Virus record (IMG/VR): IMGVR_UViG_3300047409_000303
Span: 1-42,643 of that record
Source of the DNA: a virus
Reading direction: 5' to 3' (one strand)
Length of the DNA stretch: 42,643 nucleotides
A program made the translations under genes and the position numbers. This document shows, in pieces, positions 1,877-33,855 of this stretch; the stretch's first letter is position 1; the number at the start of each line of letters is the position of its first letter. The notes beneath the pieces are model-generated. The model saw nothing but the letters and a program-made list of their open reading frames with translations, was not told where the DNA came from and did not search any database.

Positions 1877-1914
1877 CATACCCCCATAATAGGGGCACGC
1901 GGTGCGCCTGTCAA
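1877..1914 (-). promoter_or_regulatory. Promoter with internal operator, copy 1
   Basis: On the minus strand TTGACA (1914-1909) is followed by a 17-bp spacer and TATTAT (1891-1886). The spacer begins GGCGCA and ends GTGCCCC, an imperfect dyad, and TATTAT is flanked by CCCC and GGGG, a second dyad over the -10. The same layout occurs at four other sites in the window. An ATG at 1879 begins on the seventh base after the -10. The -35 overlaps the TGA of the gene upstream. Confidence 0.85.
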
Positions 1915-2651
1915 GTAGCGAGGGAGGCGATTGTCTGCATCAGTGCTTCTCCCATCGGGCCGGGCAGCGGGCGAGGCTTCACGCTACGCGCGCGGATCTC
2001 CTCGACGAGCGCCGCCCGCGCGTCGCGAGCTTCGTCGTGGCTCGGCTCGCGAGGGATCGCGCATTGCTCCATGAGGCAGCGGTGCATCGCGCTGATCTCC
2101 TCGTCGTGCAGGCAGAGCCCGATCAGCGACCACTCGCCTCGCATGCGCGTCGCCTCGTCGCCGGTCGTCACCGGCCGAGCGCGGCCGAGCTCAGCGCGCT
2201 TGTCGTCCTCCAGGGTCTGCACTGTCTGGTCGCGGGCGAACGCTGCGATGCGTACCTGGCGTCCGTCGATCGTGGGACTGCGCGCGCTCATCGATCCGGC
2301 GGCGTAGTCGAGCGCCCACTCGATCGCGCGGTTCTCGTCTACGTCGCAGACGTCGAGGAGCCACTCGCGGTACTCGTCGAAGAAGCCGCGGAACGCGTCC
2401 GCCGGGGACAGGCGCATCGGCCCGCCTTCGCTCGCGCCGCGGTGCTCGCCTTTGCGGATCGCGGCGATGAACACGCCGACCTTCGACGTGAGGTTCTGGT
2501 TGCTCGCGATACTCGACGCGAGGGCGAACACGCCGTCGTGATCCTCGTCGAGCGCGTCGATGATTTCGTATCGCGCTTCGCCGCTGATCGTCCCGACGAG
2601 GCGCTGGATCTTCGCCAAGTCGTCGTTGTACTCTCGCGCGTCCGTTGCCAT
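1911..2651 (-). CDS. Hypothetical protein, 246 aa
   Basis: An acidic, mostly helical protein (MATDAREYNDDLAKIQRLVG) with no recognised domain. The middle contains FRGFFDEYREWLLDVCDVDE, the C-terminal third SLIGLCLHDEEISAMHRCLM and a basic, Pro-rich tail (SVKPRPLPGPMGEAL). It has no signal peptide or membrane segment. I prefer the ATG at 2651 with GGGAG five bases upstream; an ATG at 2693, inside the palindrome GCTTGCATGCAAGC and 8 bases after a GGAG, would add 14 residues. The gene ends ACT-TGA, and that TGA lies inside the -35 of the promoter for the next operon. Function unknown. Confidence 0.7.
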   Translation of the reverse strand: MATDAREYNDDLAKIQRLVGTISGEARYEIIDALDEDHDGVFALASSIASNQNLTSKVGVFIAAIRKGEHRGASEGGPMRLSPADAFRGFFDEYREWLLDVCDVDENRAIEWALDYAAGSMSARSPTIDGRQVRIAAFARDQTVQTLEDDKRAELGRARPVTTGDEATRMRGEWSLIGLCLHDEEISAMHRCLMEQCAIPREPSHDEARDARAALVEEIRARSVKPRPLPGPMGEALMQTIASLAT

Positions 2652-2696
2652 CTCCACTCCCGTCCTCGAAGGATTCTCTCTCGTTGCTTGCATGCA

Positions 2697-2835
2697 AGCG
2701 TCTCCGTCTAGTGCTTGATCGCGGACATGGAGAGGGACCCCTCCCCCTACCCCCTCCCCCGCATATGCCCGGCGTGCTTCGGCTCTCCAGTGGCCCGCAT
2801 TACCGGCTACCCCTGGCGCTCTGCCGCGGTGGATG
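2697..2835 (-). other. Leader region with G-quadruplex motif (2738-2760)
   Basis: Between the 78-aa gene and the 246-aa gene is 139 bp without a convincing gene. On the minus strand, the sense strand for both neighbours, four G-runs (5, 5, 5 and 4 Gs) are separated by loops of one, two and one bases at 2760-2738. This meets the usual pattern for a very stable quadruplex in DNA or in the mRNA leader of the gene downstream. No terminator or strong promoter is visible. Confidence 0.6.
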
Positions 2836-3072
2836 TCAGCGACAAGCCTCGTGCAGGAAGCGCCACCCCCCCTCGTCTCGGAGCATCCATCCGCGTTCGC
2901 CTTTCACGAGTTCGTCTCCGCACGCCTCGCAGCGGTTCGGGAAGCGGACGTACCGGAGTAGCCACTGGTCGCTCCGCTCGGACCGGCGGACGTACACCGG
3001 AGACTCGGCTCGCGGAGCTACGCGCTCGCGGCGGTTCGCGGCTTCCCAATCGAGCCCGCCTCTACGGGGCAT
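2836..3072 (-). CDS. Small Cys/His protein, 78 aa
   Basis: The C-terminal half reads NRCEACGDELVKGERGW and ends in WRFLHEACR, giving a CxxC pair and a later His-x3-Cys pair that could bind one zinc ion. The N-terminal half is Arg-rich (MPRRGGLDWEAANRRERV) and has SPVYVRRSERSDQWLLRYV, a beta hairpin-like stretch. The ATG at 3072 has AGGA about 9 bases upstream, but a better site serves an 11-codon ORF that overlaps it. Similar small zinc proteins recur in this genome. I do not recognise the family. Confidence 0.65.
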   Translation of the reverse strand: MPRRGGLDWEAANRRERVAPRAESPVYVRRSERSDQWLLRYVRFPNRCEACGDELVKGERGWMLRDEGGWRFLHEACR

Positions 3073-3097
3073 CGGATTGTCCTGGTACCGTTCTCAT
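3062..3097 (-). CDS. Possible 11-aa upstream ORF
   Basis: The best ribosome site in the leader, AGGAGA, precedes ATG at 3097, which opens a short frame (MRTVPGQSDAP, then TAG). The stop lies 9-11 bases inside the 78-aa gene in another frame. Such an overlap can couple or limit translation of the downstream gene. A hairpin, GGAGCC-5-GGCTCC at 3110-3126, sits just upstream of the ribosome site. Whether the peptide is made is unknown. Confidence 0.35.
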   Translation of the reverse strand: MRTVPGQSDAP

Positions 3098-3313
3098 CTA
3101 GCTTCTCCTGGAGCCGTCGGGGCTCCGGTCGAGTTGAAGTCGTAGCGCGCTGGCTAGTCCTGGGCCGGTGCGCTGCGCATGCCCTTCTCGGGGCGTGCGG
3201 TGCGGGCGACTCTAGCGGACCCGCACCGCCGCGTCGAGCCGCGCCGTAGGAAGCCCGCTCCGGGGATGGCCGGCGGGGCGAGGCGGATTCCCTACGGGTC
3301 GGAGCGTCAGGGT
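3098..3313. other. Non-coding gap with small hairpin
   Basis: About 215 bp between the 170-aa gene and the 78-aa gene hold no ORF I can support on either strand. The only structure is the inverted repeat at 3110-3126. On the minus strand a weak -10-like TAGAGT (around 3212) without a good -35 could start transcription of the 78-aa gene, but this is guesswork. Confidence 0.4.
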
Positions 3314-3826
3314 CTAGGTCAGGCTCCTAGGGTCTACTGCGACCCTCACGCGGCGATCCGGCGGGGGGTTCTCGCGCCGCGCGGGCTCGATCGCGTCGCG
3401 TACCGCCGGGATCTTCCGCAGCGCCTTCACGCCCGCAGCGATGACCTTCAGGGAGACGACTTGCTCGACGGCTCGGAGCTTCGCGTCGCGGCTGATCGTC
3501 CCCTCCTCCACGAGCGTGTCGAGGATCCGGTCAAGTTCCTCCGCGTCCCACGACTCCGTTCCGGCGGTCGGGCTCGGAGCCGTCACCTTCACGCCCGGCG
3601 CGCTGAGCGTCCACTCGCCGCCTTGATCCATGCGGCCGAGTAGCTCGCTGCCGATCGCGGCGTGCGCGAGGCGGAACGCGTCCGCCTGCCGGTCCGCTTC
3701 GAGCTTCACGAGCCCCAGGATCCGCGTCAGCACCGGAGTCGGAGCGTCGGCGATCGAGGGGTACACCTCGCCGGTCGTGGTGTCGAGCACGCCGCCTTGC
3801 GGGATCAGTCCGAACTCTGTGCTCAC
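3314..3826 (-). CDS. Hypothetical protein, 170 aa
   Basis: The protein starts at GTG, overlapping the TGA of the gene upstream (GTGA). It opens MSTEFGLIPQGGVLDTTTGE and then has a long helical segment (TRILGLVKLEADRQADAFRL) and a second helical part (EELDRILDTLVEEGTISRDA). The last 25 residues are Arg/Pro-rich. There are no cysteines and no membrane segment. Placement downstream of the ERF gene suggests a role in DNA metabolism, but nothing in the sequence names it. Confidence 0.7.
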   Translation of the reverse strand: MSTEFGLIPQGGVLDTTTGEVYPSIADAPTPVLTRILGLVKLEADRQADAFRLAHAAIGSELLGRMDQGGEWTLSAPGVKVTAPSPTAGTESWDAEELDRILDTLVEEGTISRDAKLRAVEQVVSLKVIAAGVKALRKIPAVRDAIEPARRENPPPDRRVRVAVDPRSLT

Positions 3827-4221
3827 GCGTCCCTCGTCTCGTCGGCGTGGCTGCGGCGAAGCTCGAAGATCCCCGCGAGGTCCCGCTCGCGGTCCATGAT
3901 CATCCGGGCGTAGTGCGGGGCGTAGTTGTTGTTCAGCTTGAAGTCCTCCCCGCGCGTCGTGAGCGACACGTTCCAGCGGAGCACCTCGAACAACTGGTTG
4001 ATGCCCATCTTCGTCCGGCCCGCCTGCCTGCCGCGCCGAGCGAGGCGCACTAGCTCGTCGTAGACGCGCGGGTTCTCGCGGTGGAACTCGGCGAACCGCG
4101 CGCTGATCGGCGGCTCGATCGTCATCGGCTCGCGTGCGGGCTCGATGCGGTGGACATGCTCGTCGCGCGTGTCGCCGGTGAAGCGGCTGCGCTCGGGATC
4201 TCCGAAACTCATCTGGCTCAT
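3823..4221 (-). CDS. Conserved phage protein next to recombination genes, 132 aa
   Basis: I chose the ATG at 4221 because GGGAG lies five bases upstream; an ATG at 4233 overlaps the ERF stop. The core (FHRENPRVYDELVRLARRG, then MGINQLFEVLRWNVSLTT and KLNNNYAPHYARMIMDRE) resembles a small helical protein often seen in phage and prophage replication regions and usually left unnamed. Its N-terminus carries DPERSRFTGDTRDEHVHR, which recurs almost unchanged at the N-terminus of the capsid protease (39351-39404). The two proteins are otherwise unrelated. Confidence 0.75.
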   Translation of the reverse strand: MSQMSFGDPERSRFTGDTRDEHVHRIEPAREPMTIEPPISARFAEFHRENPRVYDELVRLARRGRQAGRTKMGINQLFEVLRWNVSLTTRGEDFKLNNNYAPHYARMIMDRERDLAGIFELRRSHADETRDA

Positions 4222-4232
4222 GTCGTCTCCCA

Positions 4233-5099
4233 TCAGAAGGGGATGCCGTCGTCGGCGTCCTCGGGCTTGACCGGCTCGGGGTCGGTCGGATCCGGCGGAG
4301 GCGCGGTCGGGTCGGTGAACGGCACGTCGTCCTCGCCGGGCGTCGCGGTGCTGAGCCCTTGCTCTGTCTCCCACGCCACGAGCCGCTCGACGACCGTCGC
4401 TCCTGCGCCGTCGCGCTCGGGGAGCTTGTTCAGCCGGTCGATGACGTCGCTCGCGACTGCTCGGCTGATCGACGCGAACGCCGGAGCGGGGTCCCCGGCC
4501 ATACGCGCGAGCCGCCAGGCCATGTGCTCCGGGTCGCTCGTCGCGAGGTGGTGCTTCTTCACGAGCGCCGCGAGGAAGTTCAGTTGCTTCTCGCTCGCGA
4601 CGCCTCCGGCGCTCGCGGTGCCGCTCCGCGCTCGGCTCGTCGCGACCGCTCCCTGCGCCTCGCCGTCGGTGTCGTCGCTCTCGACCGCGATCAGGAGCGC
4701 CTTCTGGACGGCGTACTTCGCCGCTCCGGTCTGCGCTTTGTAGTACGCCTTGTCGGCGGGATCCATGCCCTGCCCGAACGCGGAGCACTCGACTGCCTGC
4801 CCCTGCGCGTCGCGGATCGTCAGGACAGCGGTCACGGTCGCGAGGATCTGCGGGCGCTCGTTGCCGTCCCGGTCGAACGTCATAACCGTCTCGTGCTGTC
4901 CGCTCGGGAAGCTCAGCGTCCCGGACAACCCGACCGCGGCGAGCGCCGCGCGAGCAGCCGTGAACAGAGCCGCTTCGGTCATGTAGCCGTAATTGAAGTG
5001 CTGGTTGAAGCCGTCCTTCCCGACTGTCAGGTCGTCGGCTCCGGCGAGCGCGGAGAGCCCGGCGAGCAAGTCGAGCGGGGCTGGCGTGCTATTACTCAT
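4233..5099 (-). CDS. erf: ERF-family single-strand annealing protein
   Basis: The N-terminal 150 residues match the ERF recombinase family: GFNQHFNYGYMTEAALFTAA near residue 30, a beta-rich segment (TFDRDGNERPQILATVTAVL), and GMDPADKAYYKAQTGAAKYA with the conserved Gly/Ser/Thr-aromatic helix. ERF proteins bind single-stranded DNA and promote strand annealing in phage recombination. The C-terminus is Pro/Asp-rich and ends DADDGIPF, with a second copy (GEDDVPF) about 30 residues before; both imitate the acidic tip of bacterial SSB. The leader CTACCAGGAGG precedes the ATG. The gene sits in the operon from the promoter at 5460-5488. Confidence 0.88.
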   Translation of the reverse strand: MSNSTPAPLDLLAGLSALAGADDLTVGKDGFNQHFNYGYMTEAALFTAARAALAAVGLSGTLSFPSGQHETVMTFDRDGNERPQILATVTAVLTIRDAQGQAVECSAFGQGMDPADKAYYKAQTGAAKYAVQKALLIAVESDDTDGEAQGAVATSRARSGTASAGGVASEKQLNFLAALVKKHHLATSDPEHMAWRLARMAGDPAPAFASISRAVASDVIDRLNKLPERDGAGATVVERLVAWETEQGLSTATPGEDDVPFTDPTAPPPDPTDPEPVKPEDADDGIPF

Positions 5100-5120
5100 G
5101 CGTCCTCCTGGTAGGGGATG

Positions 5121-5152
5121 ACGACCGGCCCGCTTCGGCGGGTCGGCGTCGT
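5121..5152 (-). terminator. Strong UUCG-type hairpin between RHH and ERF genes
   Basis: ACGACCGGCCCGC at 5121-5133 and GCGGGTCGGCGTCGT at 5138-5152 pair around a TTCG loop (CGAA when read on the minus strand). No T-run follows, so it may act as an attenuator or an mRNA processing or stability element rather than a full terminator. It lies in the 54 bp between the RHH stop and the ERF start. Confidence 0.5.
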
Positions 5153-5317
5153 TCAGGGCTGGATCTTGTGCTTGCGGAAGTAATCCGCGAGAGCCTCGCG
5201 GATGATCGCGCTGATCGTGCTACCGGTGTCGGCAGCGTGCCGGTCGAGCGCCAGCGCCCATTCGGGCTTCACGTACAACGCTCCGAGCCGGTGACTATGG
5301 ATCTTCGGTCGAGCCAT
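5153..5317 (-). CDS. Ribbon-helix-helix DNA-binding protein, 54 aa
   Basis: The 54-residue frame begins ATG with AGGAGG upstream and reads MARPKIHSHRLGALYVKPEW. A short strand (LGALYVKP) is followed by two helices (WALALDRHAADTG, then STISAIIREALADYFRKH), the CopG/Arc/MetJ ribbon-helix-helix pattern with the usual small-residue turn. Such dimers insert their paired strands into the major groove and usually repress their own operon. It lies in the operon from the operator-bearing promoter at 5460-5488, so it is a candidate repressor for the repeated dyad. It is too short for many gene finders. Confidence 0.75.
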   Translation of the reverse strand: MARPKIHSHRLGALYVKPEWALALDRHAADTGSTISAIIREALADYFRKHKIQP

Positions 5318-5336
5318 TCATTCCTCCTGTCCGGGG

Positions 5337-5453
5337 TTACCTCTTGAGCATGGCGTTGTACTCGTCGCGGACTTCCTGCATGCGAGCGGAGACGCGGGCG
5401 TCCTGCTCGGGGGAGTAGCGGAGGGCTTGGAGGATCCGGGCGAGCGTTTGCAT
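5337..5453 (-). CDS. Leaderless 38-aa peptide
   Basis: ATG at 5453 is the seventh base after the TATTAT of the promoter, so the mRNA should begin at or next to the start codon. The frame reads MQTLARILQALRYSPEQDAR and continues 18 residues to MLKR and TAA. It is a basic, probably helical peptide. The ribbon-helix-helix gene follows after 19 bp with its own AGGAGG. The codons after ATG (CAA-ACG) match those at the leaderless ATG of copy 1. It could be a leader peptide rather than a functional protein. Confidence 0.5.
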   Translation of the reverse strand: MQTLARILQALRYSPEQDARVSARMQEVRDEYNAMLKR

Positions 5454-5488
5454 ACCCCCATAATAGGGGCACGGGATGCGCCTGTCAA
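5451..5488 (-). promoter_or_regulatory. Promoter with internal operator, copy 2
   Basis: TTGACA (5488-5483), 17 bp, TATTAT (5465-5460) on the minus strand. The spacer begins GGCGCA and ends GTGCCCC, and CCCC/GGGG flank the -10 as in copy 1. Downstream is GGGGGTATGCAAACG, identical to the copy 1 sequence. The TGA of the HNH gene lies inside the -35. Confidence 0.85.
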
Positions 5489-5856
5489 GTTACTGGCGGG
5501 AAGTCGCCCGCGGTCGGCGTGATGCGCTGAGCGGACAAGCGATGCAGCGCGCGGAGGATGCCGACGTGCGCGACCGCCGCCGCCTGCTCCGGGAGCGTCA
5601 GGACTTCGAGGATCGACACGCGGCGCATGTCGTAGTCGTGATGACACTGAGCGCAGAGCGGGATCACGTCGTCGGGATCCACGAAGATCGCGAACGACCC
5701 GTCCTCCAGTTCGTACGCCTCGTCGTACTTCCTCGCGAGCGTGTGAGCCGCCTGCAATCCGTACACCTCCGGGCAGAGCCGACAGCGCCCCTCCCGGCGG
5801 ACCTTCTCCAGGGCTCCGATCCACACGCGCTCGACGACAGGACGCTTCCTACGCAT
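5485..5856 (-). CDS. HNH endonuclease-like protein, 123 aa
   Basis: The protein has the zinc pairs of the HNH/McrA fold, CRLC at residues 25-28 and CAQCH at 68-72, with AAHTLARKYDEA (His38) between them and DVIPLCAQCHHDYD as the C-terminal helix. HNH enzymes nick or cut DNA; phage copies serve packaging, homing or host DNA attack. The second HN residues are less canonical (HHDYD), so activity needs support. The ATG at 5856 is the seventh base after a TACCAT -10-like box, a second leaderless candidate. The gene is divergent from the HTH regulator and ends in the -35 of the next promoter. Confidence 0.75.
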   Translation of the reverse strand: MRRKRPVVERVWIGALEKVRREGRCRLCPEVYGLQAAHTLARKYDEAYELEDGSFAIFVDPDDVIPLCAQCHHDYDMRRVSILEVLTLPEQAAAVAHVGILRALHRLSAQRITPTAGDFPPVT

Positions 5857-5862
5857 CCCCGC

Positions 5863-5868
5863 ATGGTA
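5863..5868 (-). promoter_or_regulatory. Probable -10 box for leaderless HNH gene
   Basis: TACCAT on the minus strand ends six bases before the HNH ATG, which is the distance expected for a transcript starting at the start codon. No good -35 is seen and no ribosome site precedes the ATG, so the call rests on spacing alone. Confidence 0.35.
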
Positions 5869-5881
5869 GCGCGCCGATCCC

Positions 5882-5909
5882 TTGACGCGGGCACCGAGTG
5901 CGCTACGCT
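5882..5909 (+). promoter_or_regulatory. Promoter of the HTH regulator, leaderless
   Basis: TTGACG (5882-5887), a 16-bp spacer and TACGCT (5904-5909) precede the ATG at 5917 by seven bases, so the transcript should start at or next to the ATG. The palindrome GCTTGCAAGC (5907-5916) covers the -10 edge and the start point and could be an autoregulatory site. No ribosome site is present. Confidence 0.6.
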
Positions 5910-5916
5910 TGCAAGC

Positions 5917-6399
5917 ATGCCTACACACAAACCCGAGCAGCGCAACAGGATCATCGAACTCTGGCGAGACGACTGGAGTCTCGGAGAGATCGGCACCGAG
6001 ATCGGCGTCAGCCGACAGCGCGTCAGTCAGATACTCCTCGACGCGGGCTTCTCGCCCGCGCTCCGCCGCGCCGTCCGCGTAGCCGAGAACGGGGCGGCGG
6101 AGGACGCGTTCAAGCGCCAGCGAGCGGAGACGATCGCTCGCAGGAACGAGGAGCGCGAAGCCGCCCGCGTCCGCCTCTCCGCGCTCGCCGCCGCGTTCGG
6201 CGTCCGCCCCCTGACGCTCGCGATGCACGCCGACCGGAACGGGATCTACGCGGAGCAGCGCAAAGGCACCGGGTACATGTACGGGACGGGGAAGCTCCCG
6301 CCGCGCGACACGCCGGAGGGACGGAAGCTCGCCGAGCGCGTCAAGGCAGCCGCCGCGCCCTGGAGCGCCGTGCACCTCGCCCGCACCATCCGAGCGTGA
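5917..6399 (+). CDS. HTH regulator, candidate phage repressor, 160 aa
   Basis: The N-terminus reads RIIELWRDDWSLGEIGTEIG followed by VSRQRVSQILLDAGF, a helix-turn-helix with recognition helix near residues 31-41, like the sigma-like or resolvase-type HTH of small regulators. A charged helical linker (FKRQRAETIARRNEEREAAR) leads to a second small domain (LAAAFGVRPLTLAMHADRNG). The gene is apparently leaderless and divergent from the HNH gene, a layout common for phage control regions. It is the best candidate to bind the repeated GGCGCA-N5-TGCSCC dyad, though its own promoter lacks that dyad. No DNA-binding assay can be inferred from sequence. Confidence 0.7.
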   Translation: MPTHKPEQRNRIIELWRDDWSLGEIGTEIGVSRQRVSQILLDAGFSPALRRAVRVAENGAAEDAFKRQRAETIARRNEEREAARVRLSALAAAFGVRPLTLAMHADRNGIYAEQRKGTGYMYGTGKLPPRDTPEGRKLAERVKAAAAPWSAVHLARTIRA

Positions 6400-6545: not shown

Positions 6546-6592
6546 ACTCTCCCGAAGTTCCGCGACCCCCAATCGCAAGGAGGTAACTCCCC

Positions 6593-7132: not shown

Positions 7133-7143
7133 CGGCTCCGTTG

Positions 7144-7190
7144 TAGGGGCATCGCAGCGTCGTACTTGACAGGCGCATGCGATGCCCCTA
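7144..7190. repeat. 13-bp inverted repeat around promoter copy 3
   Basis: TAGGGGCATCGCA at 7144-7156 is the exact reverse complement of TGCGATGCCCCTA at 7178-7190, with a 21-bp gap that contains the -35. The right arm overlaps the spacer dyad and the -10. It may be an extra operator half for the same regulator or a weak terminator for the gene upstream. Confidence 0.6.
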
Positions 7191-7194
7191 TTAT
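7166..7194 (+). promoter_or_regulatory. Promoter with internal operator, copy 3
   Basis: TTGACA (7166-7171), 17-bp spacer starting GGCGCA and ending TGCCCC, TATTAT (7189-7194) followed by GGGGG. Transcription should start near 7201, leaving a 32-base leader that ends CTACCAGGAGG before the ArdC-like gene. Confidence 0.85.
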
Positions 7195-7232
7195 GGGGGA
7201 GTCAAGTTCGATCCCCTACCAGGAGGAACGCA

Positions 7233-8120
7233 ATGGCTACCGCAGCCCGCAAGTCCGGCAAGTCGAAGCCGAAGTACACGCCGGAGGAAGTCGCGGCGTA
7301 CCGCGCGGAGCAGCGCGAGAAGGGTGCCGAGCTTATGAAGGCAGCCGTCTCCGAGCTTCTCACGAGCGACGGCTGGCAGAAGTGGGCGGCGATGCGCGCC
7401 CGGCTGCACGGCTACAGCCTGAACAACACGCTCCTGATCCTCATCCAGTGCCCCGAGGCGACGATGGTCGCGAGCGGCAAGTTCTGGAAAGAGCAGAACC
7501 GGTACATCACGAGCGGTACCGGCTCGGCGCTGCGGATCTTCGCTCCGTTGTTCCGCCGCCCGACGAGCGAGGAGATCGCCGCGGGCCGGGATCCGGAGTC
7601 GAAGGTTCTCTACTCGTTCAAGCTCGTGCCGGTGTTCGACGTCTCGCAGACGGACGGGGAGCCTCTCCCCTCGAAGCCGTCGCAGCCGGTGACCGGCGAC
7701 TCGCACGCGAGCTTCCTCCGGCCGCTGGAGGTGCTCGCGCAGAAGCTCGGGTACAGCGTCTCGTTCGAGTCGCTCTCCCCCGGGCTCGGCGGGTACTGCG
7801 ACAAGCAGCGGAACCACATCGCGATCCGCAACGACGTCGCGCCGAACGCGCAAGTGCGGACGCTGATCCACGAGATCGCGCACGCGCTCGGGATCGGGTA
7901 CGAGGGCTACGGCCGCGAGCAGGCCGAGGTGCTCGTGGAGACCGCGACGTTCATCGTCTCGACGAGCATCGGGCTCGACACGACCGGCGCGAGCGTCCCC
8001 TACGTCGCGTCCTGGGGCGAGGCGAACGCCGTCGCCGCGATCGAGGCGTTCGCCGGAGTCGTGGACAAGGTAGCCCGGCAGATCGAGTCGGCCGTGAAGG
8101 ACGCCGAGGTGGTCGCGTGA
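7233..8120 (+). CDS. ArdC-like antirestriction protein with zinc peptidase domain
   Basis: The ATG at 7233 follows AGGAGG. The N-terminal domain (DGWQKWAAMRARLHGYSLNN then TLLILIQCPEATMV) matches the ArdC single-strand DNA-binding domain; the C-terminal domain has HEIAHALG at residues 213-220, an HExxH zinc peptidase motif, with Glu232 or Glu236 (AEVLVETATF) as likely third ligand. ArdC from conjugative plasmids protects incoming DNA from type I restriction; phage relatives are presumed to do likewise early in infection. The protein is 295 residues, similar to known ArdC. Its own promoter with operator and leader fits early expression. It is coupled to the gene downstream by GTGA. Confidence 0.83.
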   Translation: MATAARKSGKSKPKYTPEEVAAYRAEQREKGAELMKAAVSELLTSDGWQKWAAMRARLHGYSLNNTLLILIQCPEATMVASGKFWKEQNRYITSGTGSALRIFAPLFRRPTSEEIAAGRDPESKVLYSFKLVPVFDVSQTDGEPLPSKPSQPVTGDSHASFLRPLEVLAQKLGYSVSFESLSPGLGGYCDKQRNHIAIRNDVAPNAQVRTLIHEIAHALGIGYEGYGREQAEVLVETATFIVSTSIGLDTTGASVPYVASWGEANAVAAIEAFAGVVDKVARQIESAVKDAEVVA

Positions 8121-8332
8121 CTACCCGGTGGATAGTGGACGTGGACGGGCTCGGCTCCTGCGCGGTGGCGCAGGAGGAGTCCGGCCGGTGCAGCATCGTC
8201 AGCCCGGCTGCGTCGAGGGAGAAGTGCGAGCGGCTCGTCGCGAAGCTCCGCGAGCGCGACGCCGCGCGCCTCGCCGCCAGCCGTCGCCTCGCCGGGCAGC
8301 GCCTCGCCCGACACCGCACACTCAACACTTGA
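8117..8332 (+). CDS. Small hypothetical protein, 71 aa
   Basis: GTG overlaps the TGA of the ArdC-like gene, so translation is coupled. The first part (MTTRWIVDVDGLGSCAVAQE) is a possible beta hairpin with Cys, the second an Arg/Ala-rich helix (RLVAKLRERDAARLAASRRL). The basic tail could bind nucleic acid. It ends ACT-TGA with the TGA inside the -35 of promoter copy 4. Family not recognised. Confidence 0.6.
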   Translation: MTTRWIVDVDGLGSCAVAQEESGRCSIVSPAASREKCERLVAKLRERDAARLAASRRLAGQRLARHRTLNT

Positions 8333-8357
8333 CAGGCGCACGGGGTGCCCCTATTAT
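8329..8357 (+). promoter_or_regulatory. Promoter with internal operator, copy 4
   Basis: TTGACA (8329-8334), 17-bp spacer starting GGCGCA and ending TGCCCC, TATTAT (8352-8357), then GGGGG. The leader to the ATG at 8394 contains CTACCAGGAG as in copy 3. Confidence 0.85.
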
Positions 8358-8393
8358 GGGGGCATCCCGTTCGACCACCTACCAGGAGAAACC

Positions 8394-8795
8394 ATGCAGA
8401 CCGCCCGCTACACCGCCGAGAACGCCACCAAGACTCTCGTCCGCCCCGCGTACGTCCCCGAGCACTACAACGCCGACGCCGAAGGGTTCGTCACCTTCGT
8501 GTCGCTCTCGTGGGGCGCGGACTTCATCGGCACCTCGCTCCCCGGAACCCCGCTCCCGTCCGAGGCTCTGCGGCTCGCCGCGGCGGAAATGGAGCAGGGC
8601 TACCAGAAGTCGCTCCGCCTGCAGCCCCGCGTCGAGCAGATCATGCAGGAGACGGGTTGCTCGTTCGAGGACGCGTGGGATCGCGCCGAGGACGAGGACG
8701 ACCACAACCTCATCCCGTTCGTCTCCGGCGCGACGTGGACGACGATCGGGTTCGATCTCGACGACTCCGACCTTCTCGGACAGGAGATCCGCTAA
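8394..8795 (+). CDS. Hypothetical protein, 133 aa
   Basis: First gene of the operon from promoter copy 4, with AGGAG ahead of the ATG. It is an acidic protein with no cysteine pair: MQTARYTAENATKTLVRPAY, a middle helix (EALRLAAAEMEQGYQKSLRL) and an Asp/Glu run (WDRAEDEDDHNLIPF). There is no membrane segment or signal peptide. I do not recognise a family. The TAA overlaps the next ATG (TAATG). Confidence 0.65.
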   Translation: MQTARYTAENATKTLVRPAYVPEHYNADAEGFVTFVSLSWGADFIGTSLPGTPLPSEALRLAAAEMEQGYQKSLRLQPRVEQIMQETGCSFEDAWDRAEDEDDHNLIPFVSGATWTTIGFDLDDSDLLGQEIR

Positions 8796-23663: not shown

Positions 23664-25553
23664 TCAGCCTACCTCTCCGGGGTGCGGGTCGCTCACGACT
23701 CCGCCGGTCGGCGAGTCGGCGTAACGCGTCAGGATCTCGGGCTGCGGATCGTCGTACGCCCCGGCGCGCGGATCCTCGCACGCGAAGATGATCGTGATCA
23801 CGGGATGCGCGAAGTGGTGCACGACGAGCGTGAACGCCGCCGCCTGCGGCTGCGTCGCGCTCGACACGCGCCCGACGATCCGCGTCAAGCTCGCCGCCTG
23901 CGCTTGCGTCGCGGAGCACGTGACGTGCGTGGAGCCCTTCTGCGCGGTGCAGGACGCCGCCTGCGGCTGCGTCGCGGCGCACCGATGGTTTACCCCTCGC
24001 AGGCACGCCGCCGCCTGAGGCTGCGTCGTAGACGAGGCTCGCGGGACCGAGCGGATCACGAGCGCCGCTTGCGCTTGCGTCGCCGCGATCTGCTCCGCGA
24101 CGCTCCGCTTGCACGCCGCTACCTGAGCCTGCGTCGCCGCGCACGACACGATCGTCGCCTTCGACTTGATGCAGACCGCTACCTGAGCTTGCGTGGTGCC
24201 GACGATGCGGTTCACGCTCCTCGACGAGGCTGCGCTCTGCGCCTGCGTCGCAGCGCAGGAATGCCCGGCGCTCCGCGAGCACGCCGCTGTCTCCGTCTGA
24301 GTCGCCGCGGAGGAGTGCCCGATCGTCCTCGTGAGCGCGGCGGATTGCGCCTGCGTCGCCGAGCAGAACACGAGCACCGCCTTGATCTTGACGCAGGCCG
24401 CGAGTTGCGCCTGCGTCGTCGAGCACGAGCGGTTCACGATCCGCGTGAGCGCGGCGGCTTGCGCCTGCGTCGCGGCGCTCGTGTGCCCGACGCTGCGCGA
24501 CGTCGCGGCGCTCTGCGCTTGCGTCGCCGAGCACGAGCGGCCGGGCCGTCGAATGCACGCGGCTGTCTCGGTCTGCGTGGCGGCGATGGTCTGCGCGATC
24601 GAGCGCGTTACTGCCGCCGCCTGCGCCTGCGTCGCCGCCACGATCCGACCCACGCTCCGGAGCGTTGCGGCCACCTGAGCCTGCGTCGCGCTACAGATCC
24701 TCCCGGCGCTGCGCTTGCACGCCGCGCTCTGCGCCTGCGTGGTGCCAATGATCCTCCCGACGTTGCGCGCCTGAGCGGCGAGTTGCGCCTGCGTCGCAGC
24801 GCACGCGATCTGCACCGCCTTCAACCCCACGGCGACCGCCGCCTGCGCCTGCGTGGCCGCGATGATCCGGTTCACGGTTCGCGTCGAGGCCGCGCTCTGC
24901 GCTTGCGTCGCGGCGCACGAGTGCCCGGCGGTGCGCCTACACGCCGCCGTCTCCGTCTGCGTGGCGGCGATGATCCGGTTCGCGGTGCGCAGGCAGGCGG
25001 CGAGTTGCGCTTGCGTCGCGGCGCTCGTGATGTTCACGCGCTTCAGCGCGATGCATACCGCGGCCTGCGCTTGCGTCGCGGCGATGATCCGGTTGACCGT
25101 CCGCGTGAGCGCCGCCGCTTGCGCTTGCGTGGCCGCGCTCGTGTGCCCGACCGAGCGGGTGAGAGCGGCGCTCTGCGCCTGCGTGGCGGAGCAGCGGTGC
25201 CCCGGCGAGCGGCTGCACGCCGCTGTCTCCGTCTGCGTCGCCGCGATCGTCTGGTTCACGATCCGCGTGAGCGCCGCTGCCTGCGCCTGCGTAGCGGCGA
25301 TCGAGCGGCCGACCTGGCGGGTCTGCGCGGCTGCCTGCGCCTGCGTAGCGGGAACGACCCGCCCGACTTGCCGGGTCTGCGCCGCTGCCTGCGCCTGCGT
25401 CGCCGCGACGACCCGGTTCACCGTCCGCGTGATGTCCGCCGCCTGCGCCTGCGTAGCGGCGCACGAGATCGGGAACACCGCCGCGCTGACGTCCGCGCCG
25501 CCGATGATCTGCGTGATCGTCCGGACGGTGCGAGTGCGCCAGCCGCCGGCCAT
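23664..25553 (-). CDS. Repeat protein with 30 copies of an 18-residue unit, 629 aa
   Basis: After 31 residues the chain consists of 30 repeats covering residues 32-582, with consensus AATQAQAAALTRxVNRII; 25 are 18 residues long, four are 20 and one is 21. The TQ pair is present in every repeat. A 47-residue Pro/Asp-rich C-terminus follows. The regular period suggests a solenoid or elongated rod, as in fibre shafts or spacers. It is next to the connector with the BppU-like domain and to the beta-helix protein, so a fibre role is likely. Similar ATQ repeats occur in other phage proteins of unknown function. No enzymatic residues are seen. Confidence 0.75.
   Translation of the reverse strand: MAGGWRTRTVRTITQIIGGADVSAAVFPISCAATQAQAADITRTVNRVVAATQAQAAAQTRQVGRVVPATQAQAAAQTRQVGRSIAATQAQAAALTRIVNQTIAATQTETAACSRSPGHRCSATQAQSAALTRSVGHTSAATQAQAAALTRTVNRIIAATQAQAAVCIALKRVNITSAATQAQLAACLRTANRIIAATQTETAACRRTAGHSCAATQAQSAASTRTVNRIIAATQAQAAVAVGLKAVQIACAATQAQLAAQARNVGRIIGTTQAQSAACKRSAGRICSATQAQVAATLRSVGRIVAATQAQAAAVTRSIAQTIAATQTETAACIRRPGRSCSATQAQSAATSRSVGHTSAATQAQAAALTRIVNRSCSTTQAQLAACVKIKAVLVFCSATQAQSAALTRTIGHSSAATQTETAACSRSAGHSCAATQAQSAASSRSVNRIVGTTQAQVAVCIKSKATIVSCAATQAQVAACKRSVAEQIAATQAQAALVIRSVPRASSTTQPQAAACLRGVNHRCAATQPQAASCTAQKGSTHVTCSATQAQAASLTRIVGRVSSATQPQAAAFTLVVHHFAHPVITIIFACEDPRAGAYDDPQPEILTRYADSPTGGVVSDPHPGEVG
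23808..25460. repeat. 54-bp tandem coding repeat array, about 30 units
   Basis: Each 54-bp unit encodes one 18-residue repeat; on the plus strand the words GCCTGCGCTTGCGTC and close variants recur throughout. Synonymous differences are scattered, so the array is old or diversifying, not a recent exact expansion. Five units are six or nine bases longer. The sequence invites slippage and recombination, so copy number may vary among relatives. Confidence 0.9.
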
Positions 25554-28488: not shown

Positions 28489-28498
28489 GAAGCCTCCC

Positions 28499-29146: not shown

Positions 29147-29376
29147 GGCTTCACCGCGTCGTCGTCGTGGACGAGTTGCTCCCCGATGACCTTCCCGTCG
29201 TCGTCCTCATACTCCACGCGAAGATCCGTCCGCGGCGAGTACTTGCCGTTCGGATGCTCGGTGCCCGCCAGCGGCGGGTGAACCTGGTGACCCTGCTCGA
29301 TCTCGATCACTTCGGTGACCTTCCCGACGATGCCTGTCCTGCGGCTGCGGATTCTGGTGCCGACCTTGAAGGTCAT
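29143..29376 (-). CDS. Small SH3-like or KOW-like protein, 77 aa
   Basis: The protein reads MTFKVGTRIRSRRTGIVGKV then TEVIEIEQGHQVHPPLAG and a final acidic segment. The opening motif (Gx(R/K)hRxRxxGxhGxVxEh) is like the small beta-barrel KOW/SH3 proteins seen near phage tail genes. Coupled to both neighbours by ATGA overlaps. Function unknown. Confidence 0.55.
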   Translation of the reverse strand: MTFKVGTRIRSRRTGIVGKVTEVIEIEQGHQVHPPLAGTEHPNGKYSPRTDLRVEYEDDDGKVIGEQLVHDDDAVKP

Positions 29377-29783
29377 GGGGTGAAGTCCACCGTGATCGTG
29401 TAGCTGATGCTCTCGCCGGTCGCGAGGACAGTCGAGCCATGCGACGCGTGCACCCAGCACACGCCGCCGGTCGGAGGCGAGCCGGAACCTACGACGTCGA
29501 ACAGCGCGACTTCCGCGATCGTCGGCGTGCCCGCCGCCGTGATCGTCCCGGTCACCTGAACCTTCGAGTTCCCCTGCGCGCCGGCCACTGTGCTGATCGT
29601 GCCGGTCGTGCGCGCTTCGGTGGTGCCGGTCGTCGTCTGGATGCCGGTGTCGGTCACGAGCGCCGTAGAGACGCCGGTGCCCCACTGGATGAACTTCGGT
29701 TCGGTCTGTGTCGGGGTGGAGCCAACGTGCCTCGCAGCCGTGATGGCCTTCCCGACGTTGACCACGAATGCAGCGTTGGCCAT
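29373..29783 (-). CDS. Probable structural protein, 136 aa
   Basis: Residues such as MANAAFVVNVGKAITAARHV, PKFIQWGTGVSTALVTDTGI and PTIAEVALFDVVGSGSPPTG match small all-beta phage proteins of tail fibre or head decoration type. The protein has one Cys. It is placed in the same block as the other structural candidates. Exact role unknown. Confidence 0.6.
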   Translation of the reverse strand: MANAAFVVNVGKAITAARHVGSTPTQTEPKFIQWGTGVSTALVTDTGIQTTTGTTEARTTGTISTVAGAQGNSKVQVTGTITAAGTPTIAEVALFDVVGSGSPPTGGVCWVHASHGSTVLATGESISYTITVDFTP

Positions 29784-29786
29784 GCC

Positions 29787-30083
29787 CTATGCCTCCTCGA
29801 TGACGTGCGCGTTTGCGAGGCAGTCTGGACAGTCGTGGTCGAAGCCGTTCGGGTCGCGCTTCTTCAGCGGCAGCCCGGACGAGTCCTCGCCCTCGTCCTT
29901 CCACTTCTGCTCGCCAGGCGGATTCTTGGCGTGCTTCGCGCACGGCTCGGCGACGTTCCGGAACGACTTCCCGGGACGCTTCGGCGCTCCGGCGTTCGCT
30001 TCGGAATGCCAGAGCTGGCGCTCCTGGTACGGCAAGTCGTCCGCCGCGCCGGGCAGGCTCACCTTCTTCGGCTCAGAGGACAT
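29787..30083 (-). CDS. Small zinc-finger-like protein A, 98 aa
   Basis: The C-terminal third reads RDPNGFDHDCPDC, preceded by EPCAKHAKNP; Cys, His, Cys and Cys residues could bind one zinc. The adjacent gene has the same pattern (PCPAHAG and NPNGYHHDCPDC), so the pair is a tandem duplication with divergence outside the motif. The remainder is polar and disordered. Function unknown. Confidence 0.6.
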   Translation of the reverse strand: MSSEPKKVSLPGAADDLPYQERQLWHSEANAGAPKRPGKSFRNVAEPCAKHAKNPPGEQKWKDEGEDSSGLPLKKRDPNGFDHDCPDCLANAHVIEEA

Positions 30084-30336
30084 GCCGTGTCACCGTCCTT
30101 TCGAGTGTCTCCTGCTTGGTGGGAGTGGAGGCGCAGTCCGGGCAGTCGTGGTGGTAACCGTTCGGGTTCTGCGCGACTCGGCGTCCCGCGGGGATCGACC
30201 CGCCGACCGGGACGCGCATGCCGTCGTCGAGCACCATGCAGCGAGGGACGCTCCCCGCGTGCGCAGGGCACGGCAGGAGACGCGTGATCGTCGCCTCCAC
30301 GGTGACTTCGACTTCCTGGCTTGTCGCTTCGCTCAT
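30073..30336 (-). CDS. Small zinc-finger-like protein B, 87 aa
   Basis: ATG at 30336 follows AGGAGG. The chain (MSEATSQEVEVTVEATITRL, then LPCPAHAG and NPNGYHHDCPDCAS) has the same CxxH and HxCxxC groups as its neighbour. It overlaps the neighbour gene by 11 bp. It lies downstream of the hairpin that follows the major tail gene. No DNA-binding fold is visible beyond the ligands. Confidence 0.65.
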   Translation of the reverse strand: MSEATSQEVEVTVEATITRLLPCPAHAGSVPRCMVLDDGMRVPVGGSIPAGRRVAQNPNGYHHDCPDCASTPTKQETLERTVTRHVL

Positions 30337-30366
30337 AACGCCTCCTGTCCGGTGTCCGGAATGCCC

Positions 30367-30401
30367 GCCCCTCGCGCCAGCCGGACGCAAGCGCGAGGGG
30401 C
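30367..30401 (-). terminator. Strong hairpin after the major tail gene
   Basis: GCCCCTCGCGC (30367-30377) pairs exactly with GCGCGAGGGGC (30391-30401) across a 13-base loop. It sits in the 77 bp between the major tail protein stop and the next start. There is no T-run, so partial termination or mRNA 3' end protection of the abundant major tail mRNA is likely. Confidence 0.7.
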
Positions 30402-30413
30402 AGCCTGTTGAAC

Positions 30414-31088
30414 TCAGGTGCTCTGCGACGAGTAGCCGCAGAACGCGGTCGGCTGCGTGTTGTCCCAGAAGTACGCGCCGCCGATGAGGCTCCCGGCGAT
30501 GCCCGCGGGCCAGTCGCCGTACACGTTCGCCCAGTTCGGGTTCTGCCTCGTGAAGCCCTTGAAGGCCGGGAGGAAGAAGTCGTTCTCCAGCTTCGACGCG
30601 TCGAACTGCCAGAAGCTCATCGGGAACACCCAGCGGATGTACCGGTTCGGCGGATCGACCTGACGGTCGTTCGTCCACGCGTCCGTCCAGAACTCGACTG
30701 CGACCGGCGGCTGCGGAGTCGCCGAGCACGAGAGCTGGTTGGGGAACACGTTGCCGACGGGGACCGGCAGCGTCGAGGTATCGACGAGGACACCGGAGCC
30801 CGTGAGAAGCTCGATCAGGGCGGGGTTCAGCTTCGTAAGCTGGAACGCGAGGTTGAACCGCAGGAGCTTGTCGAAGCCCTTATACGACAAGTCGATGCAG
30901 TCGCAACCTCCGAGCACCTCTTTCGCCTCGCCGTCCTTGATCTCCGGCGTGAAGTCCACCGACATGATCGAGTCGGTGACGACGTGGTTGTTCGCGCCGC
31001 CCTTGAAGGTGCCGTCGCTGTTGAGGCGAGTGAACCGGGCCTTGCAGATGTGGATGCTGCCCGGGCAGATCGCTGTGGCTTGTGCCAT
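30414..31088 (-). CDS. Major tail protein (tail tube), 224 aa
   Basis: Resembles actinophage major tail proteins: ICPGSIHICKARFTRLNSDG, NNHVVTDSIMSVDFTPEIKD, and CIDLSYKGFDKLLRFNLAFQ, then LTGSGVLVDTSTLPVPVG. The length is usual for the family. In this genome it lies directly downstream of the capsid genes and not next to the tail assembly chaperones, about 9 kb away. Assignment is by motif. Confidence 0.7.
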   Translation of the reverse strand: MAQATAICPGSIHICKARFTRLNSDGTFKGGANNHVVTDSIMSVDFTPEIKDGEAKEVLGGCDCIDLSYKGFDKLLRFNLAFQLTKLNPALIELLTGSGVLVDTSTLPVPVGNVFPNQLSCSATPQPPVAVEFWTDAWTNDRQVDPPNRYIRWVFPMSFWQFDASKLENDFFLPAFKGFTRQNPNWANVYGDWPAGIAGSLIGGAYFWDNTQPTAFCGYSSQST

Positions 31089-31104
31089 GCTGGCCCGCTC
31101 CTCT

Positions 31105-31965
31105 CTACGTTACGGGGGTGATCGTGCGGTCTACCTGGACGGCCGCGTGGATTCGTTGATCCCAGGTGATAAGCACGTACCGCTCGGCGCGGAACGTGGT
31201 GACGTTGTGCTGCCGATCGGTCGCGGCGCTCATCGTGTCCGGGAGGATCTGCACCTCGCTCTTCCTGACTTCGACCGGCCCGGTGGCGTACAGCCAGTCG
31301 TTCGTGTTCGTCGGCGCGGTGCCGTCCGGCTTCGAGCCGACGTACCCGACGCCGGGGACGACGATCGTCCCTAGCTGCGTCTTGGCGACCCCGCGAGCGA
31401 GGTCGCTCTCCACGGTGTCCCATCCAGAGACGAGCGAGAAGATCGTGGGACGCATGTGGATGAAGCCGTTCCCGCCCTTGTCGGCGATCTCCTGCTCCAG
31501 CCGCGCAACGCCGTCCCTCACGCTCACCGCCGTGCCTGCGTTCAGTGTGTTCGTCCCCGCCGCTTGCGCGAGGTGCGGGTTGTCGGGCCGCAGCGCGCCC
31601 GACCAGAACTCCCGCTCGATCGCCCAGTGTTCGTACGCCTCCAGCGCGACTGTGACGCGACGCTGCCACTCCCCGGGGTCCCGCACCGAGCGCGTGGTGC
31701 ACGTGATCCCTTCGAGGACATTGAAGCTCGCGTACGTCTCCTCCGTCGCCGGAGTGCCCGCGTCCTTCGAGTGCCCCGCCGACGAGGCGGACTGGCACGG
31801 ATCGAACACGTCCGGCAAGTCCCGCGGGTACGGCCAGATCGCCGCGCCGTTGATCCACCGGTCGCCCGTGACCGGAACCGCGCGAGCGGCTCCGACAAGC
31901 GTGAGCGCCGGAGGGGAGGGTTGAGGCCCGTCGATAACGATGGGCGGCCCATATGTATTGGCCAC
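31105..31965 (-). CDS. Head-associated structural protein, 286 aa
   Basis: Starts at GTG, 39 bp after the capsid gene. Motifs DRWINGAAIWPYPRDLPDVF, VLEGITCTTRSVRDPGEWQR, and ALEAYEHWAIEREFWSGAL are typical of a conserved actinophage protein found with capsid and tail genes. The C-terminal half (FIHMRPTIFSLVSGWDTVES then VGYVGSKPDG) has a coat-protein-like mixture of strands and helices. It could be a minor capsid or decoration protein. Unproven. Confidence 0.6.
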   Translation of the reverse strand: MANTYGPPIVIDGPQPSPPALTLVGAARAVPVTGDRWINGAAIWPYPRDLPDVFDPCQSASSAGHSKDAGTPATEETYASFNVLEGITCTTRSVRDPGEWQRRVTVALEAYEHWAIEREFWSGALRPDNPHLAQAAGTNTLNAGTAVSVRDGVARLEQEIADKGGNGFIHMRPTIFSLVSGWDTVESDLARGVAKTQLGTIVVPGVGYVGSKPDGTAPTNTNDWLYATGPVEVRKSEVQILPDTMSAATDRQHNVTTFRAERYVLITWDQRIHAAVQVDRTITPVT

Positions 31966-32003
31966 TCGCTACTCCTCTCCGACGCTCAGTGCTCGGGTTC
32001 CTA

Positions 32004-33662
32004 TCAGCAGCCGCTCGGCGCTGCCGGAGCCGAGACGACCCCGTTGGCGCAGACGGTGCTCGTGACCGCGAGAGACTCGATGCCGATCTTCGCGTAGTTC
32101 TCGAACACCTCGCCGAACGCCTGGAAGTCGTTCGTCGCGTTCAGCACCGAATCGCGGACGATGCCGAGATCCAGCTCGCCGCCGTTCAGGCGGATCCAGG
32201 TGCCCTCCGGAGCGATGTACCACTTCACCGTCGCCGGGTAGTTCAGGTACGCGCCAGCGTTCTGCGTGCCGAACACCTGACCGCCGCCCGTCTCCCCGTC
32301 GATGAAGAACGTCGGCTCGACGCCCGCGGCGCGGAGAAGCTCGACGACTCCGTTGCGGTCACGGTCGAAGCGGTTGAACTGCCCGCGCTCCAGATCCGTG
32401 AGCAGGAGCCCCTTGACCCACTCGGGGAACCAGGCGCGGAACCGCGCGTTGGGATCCATGCGGTGCCGCGAGCGGAAGCCGTCGGTGATCGCGTTAACTT
32501 CCGCGAGCAGCGTGTTGACCGCGCCGTTGTACTGCGCGCCGGTCACGGCCGTCGAGCCGTTCTTGATCGCGTCGAGTGCCTTCGTCTCGCGGACGCGGGC
32601 GTGCGCCGCCATCGTCAGGCTCATGAAGTTGTCGACGAGTTCCGGCCAGGAGCGCGCGCCCATGTTCCCGATCGTGAGGCAGTGGTACACCGCGTCGATG
32701 AGCACCTGGGTCTGCGCCGGGCAGGGGAGCGTCTGGCACGTCTTGGTCGCCGTCGTGCCGCCGATCGCGTCGTTCGCTGCGGTCATGATCCCGACCGCGG
32801 TGCTGATGTTCGCGAGGGTCGGGGGAGCCATGAAGCGGATCCCGCCGCGGTCCGCGCCGAACAACGGCAGCGAGTCGATCACCGGCGTCGCCTCCGTCGC
32901 GAGCAGCTGGAGGTCGTAGTACGGCTCGACCGGAGCGCAGAGCCCGCCGGACGCGACGAGCGCCTCCGGGCCGACCACGGCGTCCAGCTTCTGCATGTTC
33001 CCGGAGTCGTCGCCGTCGTACAGCATCCGATCTTCGGGGATCTCCACGCTGTAGCGGATCAGCGGGACGTCCTCGCGCGGGCCGGGGGCGGTGTTGTGCA
33101 TCCGATTCCACTTGTCGCTGATCATCGCCGCTGCCTGTCGGCGGGTGATCGTCGCGCCGCCGTCGAACTCGCCCGGCTGAGCGGCGAGCGCCATCAGCTT
33201 CACTCCGGCCGGGACGCCCTTCGCGTCCTTCGGCTCGTGCGCCGCCGAGCGCCGCAACGGCTGCCGCTTCGCCGCCGCCAGGACGGGCTCCGGCTCGGTG
33301 GCCGGCGTCGCGTCAGGCTCGGGCTCGGCGTCCGCGACGGGCTCCGTCTCCGGCTCGGCGTCGTCCGCTGCGGGCTCCTCGTCGGGCTCCGGCGGGTTCA
33401 GGCGTTCGGCGAGGCGAGCGCGCGTCTCTGCGAGGATCTGCGCCTGCTCGGCGGCTGCCTCGTCGCGCTTCGTCTCCTCCGCGCTGATCGTGTCGTCCGC
33501 GGCCATCGCGTTCTCGATCAGGGTGACGGCTTCGCTGCCGAGTTCGCCGAGCTTGTCCTCGTCGTTCAGGGCTTCGAGGCGCTCGCGTACGTCTTTCGCG
33601 AGTAGCTCCAGTTCCTCGTCGCTGAGGGCGGAGAGGTCATCGGGGATAACCAGCGGCTCCAT
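32004..33662 (-). CDS. Major capsid protein with N-terminal scaffold-like domain, 552 aa
   Basis: The HK97-type coat domain occupies roughly residues 175-552 (VVGPEALVASGGLCAPVEPY, IRFMAPPTLANISTAVGIMT, ARVRETKALDAIKNGSTAVT, RAWFPEWVKGLLLTDLERGQ, VKWYIAPEGTWIRLNGGELD). The first 130 residues are acidic and helical with a Pro/Glu/Asp-rich linker (PPEPDEEPAADDAEPETEPV), as in HK97-like coat proteins with a built-in delta scaffold that the protease removes. I prefer the ATG at 33662, with GGAG upstream; an ATG at 33695 adds 11 residues. Confidence 0.92.
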   Translation of the reverse strand: MEPLVIPDDLSALSDEELELLAKDVRERLEALNDEDKLGELGSEAVTLIENAMAADDTISAEETKRDEAAAEQAQILAETRARLAERLNPPEPDEEPAADDAEPETEPVADAEPEPDATPATEPEPVLAAAKRQPLRRSAAHEPKDAKGVPAGVKLMALAAQPGEFDGGATITRRQAAAMISDKWNRMHNTAPGPREDVPLIRYSVEIPEDRMLYDGDDSGNMQKLDAVVGPEALVASGGLCAPVEPYYDLQLLATEATPVIDSLPLFGADRGGIRFMAPPTLANISTAVGIMTAANDAIGGTTATKTCQTLPCPAQTQVLIDAVYHCLTIGNMGARSWPELVDNFMSLTMAAHARVRETKALDAIKNGSTAVTGAQYNGAVNTLLAEVNAITDGFRSRHRMDPNARFRAWFPEWVKGLLLTDLERGQFNRFDRDRNGVVELLRAAGVEPTFFIDGETGGGQVFGTQNAGAYLNYPATVKWYIAPEGTWIRLNGGELDLGIVRDSVLNATNDFQAFGEVFENYAKIGIESLAVTSTVCANGVVSAPAAPSGC

Positions 33663-33826
33663 GTGGCGTGCTCCATTCGGGGTCGGGTGGATCAAGACTC
33701 GACTCCGGGGCTACGCCTCCGGCCGCACCGGTTCCGCTAGGCGGGGTGCTCGAACGCGACGGACGGTACCACACTCGTTCGGACGTGAACTCTCCACTCG
33801 CGGTGGAGTGATCCTCGACCAGTTAC
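33663..33826. other. Divergent intergenic region with hairpin 33792-33808
   Basis: The 164 bp between the capsid start and the next promoter contain CTCCAC-5-GGTGGAG-like symmetry at 33792-33808. On the minus strand TACCGT with a poor -35 (TTCACG) could start capsid transcription. I see no ORF here. A promoter for the late head genes is expected at this place because the plus cassette interrupts the minus operon. Confidence 0.4.
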
Positions 33827-33855
33827 TTGACAGGCGCATTGCGTGCGCCTACACT
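33827..33855 (+). promoter_or_regulatory. Promoter with internal operator, copy 5
   Basis: TTGACA (33827-33832), 17-bp spacer GGCGCATTGCGTGCGCC, which is a perfect GGCGCA/TGCGCC dyad, and TACACT (33850-33855). The CCCC/GGGG dyad over the -10 is absent here, unlike in copies 1-4. The leader has CTACCAGGAGG before the GTG at 33901. Confidence 0.82.

What the first reader, a model, noticed from the sequence alone, without database searches (positions are those of the whole stretch)
1886..33855. Five operator-bearing promoters form a phage regulon
Five sites (1886-1914, 5460-5488, 7166-7194, 8329-8357, 33827-33855; the first two on the minus strand) share ACTTGACAGGCGCA, a 17-bp spacer with a GGCGCA-N5-TGCSCC dyad and a -10 (TATTAT in four, TACACT in one). 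In four copies CCCC and GGGG flank the -10 as a second dyad. A repressor binding within the spacer would block RNA polymerase. Candidates in the window are the HTH protein (5917-6399) and the RHH protein (5153-5317). Sequence features are seen directly; the repressor link is inference.
Basis: partly seen in the sequence, partly recalled or inferred. Interest (0 to 1): 0.8.

Follow-up and report, generated by a model that had tools for sequence, protein, structure and literature searches.

The report
Phage early promoters sharing one operator
An uncultured phage drives its early genes from five nearly identical strong promoters, each with the same palindromic control site inside it, and a sixth, weaker copy lies in front of a phage regulator gene, so the phage probably makes its own repressor to switch these genes off; it is a new example of a familiar arrangement.

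Summary
The five sites are real and exactly as described. Each is a near-consensus sigma-70-type promoter (TTGACA, 17-bp spacer, TATTAT or TACACT) whose spacer holds GGCGCA-N5-TGCSCC. No other promoter in the genome reaches the same match. In four copies the 5-bp centre is fully variable while the other 31 columns are identical, as expected of a dimer-binding operator. A sister record, 100% identical where it overlaps, brings the genome to about 57.3 kb. In it the core GSGCA-N5-TGCSC occurs six times, always behind TTGAC: the five sites plus a weaker sixth (5882-5909) in front of the HTH gene at 5917. None was expected in 300 simulated genomes. This autoregulation-type site favours the HTH protein over the RHH protein, though binding is unproven. 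One more copy of the 14-mer (outside the window) lacks the right half and the -10. The second dyad around the -10 is better read as the CCCC of the half-site plus a G-rich discriminator. No integrase was found, so a lytic early-gene shut-off is more likely than classical lysogeny. Best filed as a new member of a known kind.

The parts
1886..1916 (-). Promoter-operator 1: ACTTGACA-GGCGCA-CCGCG-TGCCCC-TATTAT, then GGGGGTATG
   Evidence: +1 is predicted at or next to the ATG at 1879 (leaderless start, inference)
5460..5490 (-). Promoter-operator 2: N5 = TCCCG, then GGGGGTATG (ATG at 5453)
7164..7194 (+). Promoter-operator 3: N5 = TGCGA
8327..8357 (+). Promoter-operator 4: N5 = CGGGG
   Evidence: 85% identical to site 3 over 66 bp
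33825..33855 (+). Promoter-operator 5: N5 = TTGCG, symmetric half-sites GGCGCA/TGCGCC, -10 TACACT
5882..5909 (+). Sixth, weaker promoter-operator in front of the HTH gene: TTGACG-C-GGGCA-CCGAG-TGCGC-TACGCT (16-bp spacer)
   Evidence: all six occurrences of the core GSGCA-N5-TGCSC in the 57.3-kb genome have TTGAC at the same distance; none in 300 simulated genomes
5917..6399 (+). HTH protein, 160 aa, preferred candidate regulator (sigma-70 region 4-like HTH at residues 6-41, then a 47-residue helix)
   Evidence: Pfam Sigma70_r4 3.8e-6; AlphaFold2 mean pLDDT 80
5153..5317 (-). RHH protein, 54 aa, alternative candidate, second gene after promoter 2
   Evidence: Pfam RHH_1 3.3e-6
5337..5453 (-). 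38-aa ORF directly after promoter 2, predicted leaderless
   Evidence: no family match
1286..1879 (-). DUF6011-containing protein gene after promoter 1; a second in-frame ATG with a ribosome site lies at 1852
   Evidence: Pfam DUF6011 1.3e-13
4233..5099 (-). Erf-like single-strand annealing protein gene, downstream of promoter 2
   Evidence: PF04404 1.3e-7; phrog_155 5.1e-15
7233..8120 (+). Metallopeptidase/anti-restriction-like protein gene after promoter 3
   Evidence: phrog_7245 anti-restriction 2.5e-8; DUF6782 3e-5
8394..8795 (+). First gene after promoter 4, function unknown
33901..34509 (+). Gene after promoter 5: 202-aa protein with a lysine/alanine/proline-rich tract, function unknown
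7144..7156 (+). TAGGGGCATCGCA, exact reverse complement of 7178-7190 inside site 3: an extra half-site-bearing arm upstream of that promoter
   Evidence: DNA fold z = -6.6; role unknown

Best explanation
The sites are the phage's early promoters for host RNA polymerase, and each carries one operator in the -35/-10 spacer. A phage-encoded dimeric DNA-binding protein, most likely the HTH protein made from 5917-6399, binds the two half-sites GGSGCA, whose centres are 11 bp apart on one face of the helix. There it blocks formation of the open complex and shuts off several scattered operons together (DUF6011 gene; small ORF, RHH and Erf genes; anti-restriction-like metallopeptidase; two sets of unknown genes). 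The same protein binds a weaker variant in front of its own gene and so sets its own level. Shown: the promoters, the dyad, its separate conservation, the complete set of six, and the position of the sixth. Inferred: that a protein binds, that it is the HTH protein, that it represses, and early timing.
For: Exact sites. With at most one mismatch in TTGACA and two in TATAAT, these five are the only promoters in the genome, and such strong promoters need a brake rather than an activator. In four copies the only variable columns of 36 are the five of N5 (P about 8e-5). The core occurs six times in 57.3 kb, all six behind TTGAC; simulations give 0.3-0.7 cores per genome and no full sites. The sixth copy faces the HTH gene 13 bp upstream of its ATG. 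The protein has a confident HTH and a long helix that could form a dimer. The motif is absent from 84,980 bacterial and archaeal species genomes in strict form and from 399 genomes of the guessed host class in relaxed form, which speaks for a phage-encoded rather than a host regulon.
Against: No binding or expression data. Half-sites at the HTH gene differ at the outer base and its -10 is poor. By PWM alone this site does not stand out from the best chance hits (13.1 against top chance scores of 9.8-14.9); its support is the conserved core plus position. The long-helix dimer idea rests on a single-sequence model with no significant structural match. The RHH gene is itself inside the regulon.
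Confidence: 0.5

Rival explanations
1. The 54-aa RHH protein is the repressor: two RHH dimers bind the spacer dyad, as Arc does at P-ant of phage P22, and repress the operon that holds the RHH gene together with the other promoters.
For: RHH_1 match. Gene is second after promoter 2. Size and spacer-centred operator match the Arc case (established knowledge, from memory).
Against: Does not explain why the sixth and only other copy of the core lies in front of the HTH gene, although a repressor controlling a second regulator would. No close relative in phage records or solved structures.
Confidence: 0.22
2. Another factor binds the dyad: the second phage RHH protein (L017:6386-6640, outside the window) or a host protein.
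For: The second RHH gene exists. Spacer dyads of similar sequence occur in promoters of unrelated phages.
Against: Motif absent from 399 genomes of the guessed host class and from genome contigs in strict form. The second RHH gene has a different dyad, CCGGG-TATAAC-CCCGG, at its own -10. Control scans show that spacer dyads are common in phages generally (5 contigs for an unrelated dyad), so the similarity is not specific.
Confidence: 0.15
3. There is no operator. The sites are recently copied promoter cassettes, and the spacer sequence is kept for promoter strength only.
For: Sites 3 and 4 are 85% identical over 66 bp; sites 1 and 2 share GGGGGTATGCAAACG. Cassette spread probably did occur.
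Against: Recent copying does not leave five variable columns only in the centre of a dyad with all flanks invariant. The divergent sixth copy keeps the dyad core and TTGAC but not the -10 or spacer length.
Confidence: 0.13

Closest known systems
P22 Arc at P-ant (spacer-centred operator; from memory)
   Same: Operator dyad lies between -35 and -10 of a strong phage promoter; a very small phage DNA-binding protein is encoded in a controlled operon.
   Different: Arc is RHH and acts mainly at one promoter. Here the set holds six promoters and the favoured regulator is an HTH protein. Sequences unrelated.
Cluster A mycobacteriophage repressor with operators and stoperators (PMC6550527, PMC9283540)
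   Same: Repeated repressor sites scattered over the genome, some inside promoters; the incomplete 14-mer at L017:10655 lies between genes and points along transcription.
   Different: Cluster A sites are asymmetric 13-mers, more than twenty per genome and mostly outside promoters. Here the site is a dyad, with six copies, all at promoters.
Cluster O (Corndog) phages: SigA promoters with leaderless starts and a 17-bp dyad repeat (PMC4351075)
   Same: Actinobacterial-type phage with strong SigA-like promoters, some predicted leaderless, and a repeated dyad with invariant arms and a variable centre.
   Different: Corndog has TGTTCGG-N3-CCGAACA in 34 copies, many within ORFs and not tied to the promoter spacer.
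Start-associated sequences of Cluster K mycobacteriophages (PMC3203893)
   Same: A conserved element around the ribosome-binding site of a gene subset: here CTACCAGGAG before the genes of promoters 1, 3, 4, 5 and Erf.
   Different: GGGATAGGAGCCC in Cluster K; different sequence and fewer copies here.

Membership tests
Phage repressor regulon (shared operator over several phage promoters) | One operator sequence at several promoters of the same phage | tested here: met
   Six promoter-associated copies, no others in the 57.3-kb genome
Phage repressor regulon (shared operator over several phage promoters) | Phage-encoded DNA-binding protein | tested here: met
   HTH and RHH genes present
Phage repressor regulon (shared operator over several phage promoters) | The protein binds the operator and represses | not testable with these tools
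   Needs binding and reporter assays
Phage repressor regulon (shared operator over several phage promoters) | Operator and regulator conserved together in relatives | tested here: inconclusive
   No relative of the HTH, RHH or Erf genes with the sites was found; best terminase match 45%
Cluster A stoperator system | Asymmetric site, more than twenty copies, mostly outside promoters | tested here: not met
   Dyad, six copies, all at promoters; one incomplete 14-mer only
Arc-type RHH repressor | RHH protein binding a spacer-centred operator | tested here: inconclusive
   RHH protein present and operator is spacer-centred; binding not testable, and Arc itself is not a sequence match in PDB chains
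Lambda-like lysogeny switch | Integrase and CI-like repressor | tested here: not met
   No tyrosine integrase or resolvase family match in window or sister record; only a sub-threshold HTH_3 match, the HTH gene itself

The most novel reading that the evidence does not exclude
A non-integrating phage controls all its strong promoters with an orphan autoregulated HTH repressor of a new family, and the lone half-site 14-mer between structural genes acts as a roadblock to elongation, which would combine a symmetric promoter operator with a stoperator-like half-site.
Probability: 0.1. Interest if true: 0.6.

Novelty: new member of a known kind. Interest (0 to 1): 0.4.

Why it matters
It gives a complete, sequence-defined regulon (six sites, two named candidate regulators) in a phage with no known relatives, probably of a poorly studied actinobacterial group, and makes the repressor assignment testable with one binding assay. 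The operator-bearing promoters would also serve as compact, repressible promoters for high-GC hosts.

Tried and rejected
Relatives of the HTH, RHH, Erf and metallopeptidase proteins in viral contigs, phage and plasmid records: none with the sites. Terminase-alignment search: 80 loci of at most 45% identity; tblastn of 16 window proteins against them and the other side loci gave no hit. Related motifs in other phages: several true-looking promoters with GCGCA-N5-TGCGC spacers, one record with two; but a control dyad also gave 5 contigs and a scrambled right half 0, so this shows that spacer dyads are common, not that these share a regulator. Host guess: the collagen-like gene (L017:8719-9534) hits a Solirubrobacteraceae MAG at 34%, weak. 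Two hits to the HTH region in that class had no operator nearby and no recognisable relative. Structure searches of both candidate regulators gave nothing significant. The second dyad as a separate operator was rejected because CCCC is part of the half-site. The reading of the sites as RNA elements was not supported (no Rfam match; ordinary fold energies for sites 1 and 5).

Full report
Observation. Each is followed by N5, TGCSCC and a -10 at 17 bp. At a cut-off of one mismatch in TTGACA and two in TATAAT these five are the only promoters in the window, and none was found in the rest of the genome. An A lies about seven bases after each -10 except at site 3 (A or G), which places the start of transcription on the ATG in sites 1 and 2 (leaderless, inference).

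Genome. The window is an IMG/VR record of 42,643 bases. A sister record (IMGVR_UViG_3300045284_000156, 43,500 bases) is 100% identical to window 1-4751 and 18538-42643 and joins the two window ends through 14.6 kb of further sequence. The genome is therefore about 57.3 kb and circular or circularly permuted, and could be searched completely. No tyrosine integrase or resolvase match was found. Terminase, head and tail genes are present, so this is a tailed phage. The nearest terminases are about 40-45% identical.

The dyad. In the four TATTAT copies the only variable columns of 36 are the five between the half-sites (P about 8e-5 for such clustering). That pattern is the mark of a symmetric protein site and not of recent copying alone, although cassette copying did happen (sites 3 and 4 are 85% identical over 66 bp). 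The core GSGCA-N5-TGCSC occurs six times in the whole genome. All six have TTGAC at the same distance; simulated genomes give 0.3-0.7 cores and no full sites. The sixth, at 5882-5909, precedes the ATG of the HTH gene by 7 bases after its -10 (TACGCT) and has weaker outer half-site bases (C and A in place of G). By weight matrix alone it would not stand out; its support is the intact core, the TTGAC and its position.

Which regulator. The HTH protein (5917-6399) has a sigma-region-4-like HTH and, in a single-sequence model of mean pLDDT 80, a 47-residue helix that could dimerise. A weak operator at its own promoter is the classical form of autoregulation. The 54-aa RHH protein lies in the operon of site 2 and would fit a spacer operator as Arc does in P22 (from memory). 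I put the HTH protein at about one half and the RHH protein at about one fifth. A host regulator is unlikely: the motif is absent from 84,980 species genomes in strict form and from 399 genomes of the guessed host class in relaxed form, but the host is a weak guess (Solirubrobacteraceae).

The second dyad. CCCC-TATTAT-GGGG is present in four copies, but CCCC is the end of the TGCCCC half-site and GGGGG is where a G-rich discriminator sits. Site 5, with TGCGCC, lacks both. A second protein is not needed. A different dyad, CCGGG-TATAAC-CCCGG, frames the -10 of the second RHH gene, which is curious and unexplained.

What the promoters drive. A DUF6011 protein; a 38-aa ORF, the RHH protein and an Erf annealing protein; an anti-restriction-like metallopeptidase; and unknown proteins, one with a basic lysine-rich tract. 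These look like early takeover and recombination genes (inference). Because the promoters are strong on their own, repression is likelier than activation. With no integrase, shut-off of early genes during lytic growth, or control in an extrachromosomal state, is likelier than a lambda-like lysogeny switch.

Other phages. Relaxed scans found unrelated phage promoters with GCGCA-N5-TGCGC in the spacer, one record with two. A scrambled right half gave none and an unrelated dyad gave five contigs, so spacer dyads are a general phage design; shared regulators are not implied.

Verdict. The regulon reading is well supported at the DNA level and unproven at the protein level. It resembles Arc/P-ant in layout, and Cluster A and Cluster O phages in having repeated sites (PMC6550527, PMC9283540, PMC4351075), but is a member of none of these. 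New member of a known kind.

Noticed in passing
L017:10655-10668 (+), outside the window: A further exact 14-mer ACTTGACAGGCGCA directly after a stop codon and before a glycosyltransferase-like gene, with no right half-site and no -10: a deleted promoter or a lone half-site.
   Followed up: partly
1852-1869 (-), 5099-5113 (-), 7217-7224, 8380-8387, 33885-33892 (+): CTACCAGGAG (CTACCAGGGAG at site 1) precedes the start codons of the genes after promoters 1, 3, 4, 5 and of Erf, like the start-associated sequences of Cluster K phages; an unrelated phage (L008:3640) has CTACTAGGAG after its dyad promoter.
   Followed up: partly
7144-7156 and 7178-7190: A perfect 13-bp inverted repeat spans promoter 3, adding a third half-site upstream.
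   Followed up: partly
L017:6365-6388: CCGGG-TATAAC-CCCGGGTATG: a dyad frames the -10 of a predicted leaderless second RHH gene (L017:6386-6640).
   Followed up: no
23664-25553 (-): A 629-aa ORF made of diverged 54-bp (18-residue) repeats rich in A-A-T-Q-A-Q-A.
   Followed up: no
4144-4201 and 39348-39405: Two separate genes (3823-4221 and 38433-39437) share a near-identical stretch encoding RSRFTGDTRDEHVHR.
   Followed up: no
5485-5857 (-): An HNH-like gene is divergent to the HTH gene, so the sixth site lies between them.
   Followed up: no
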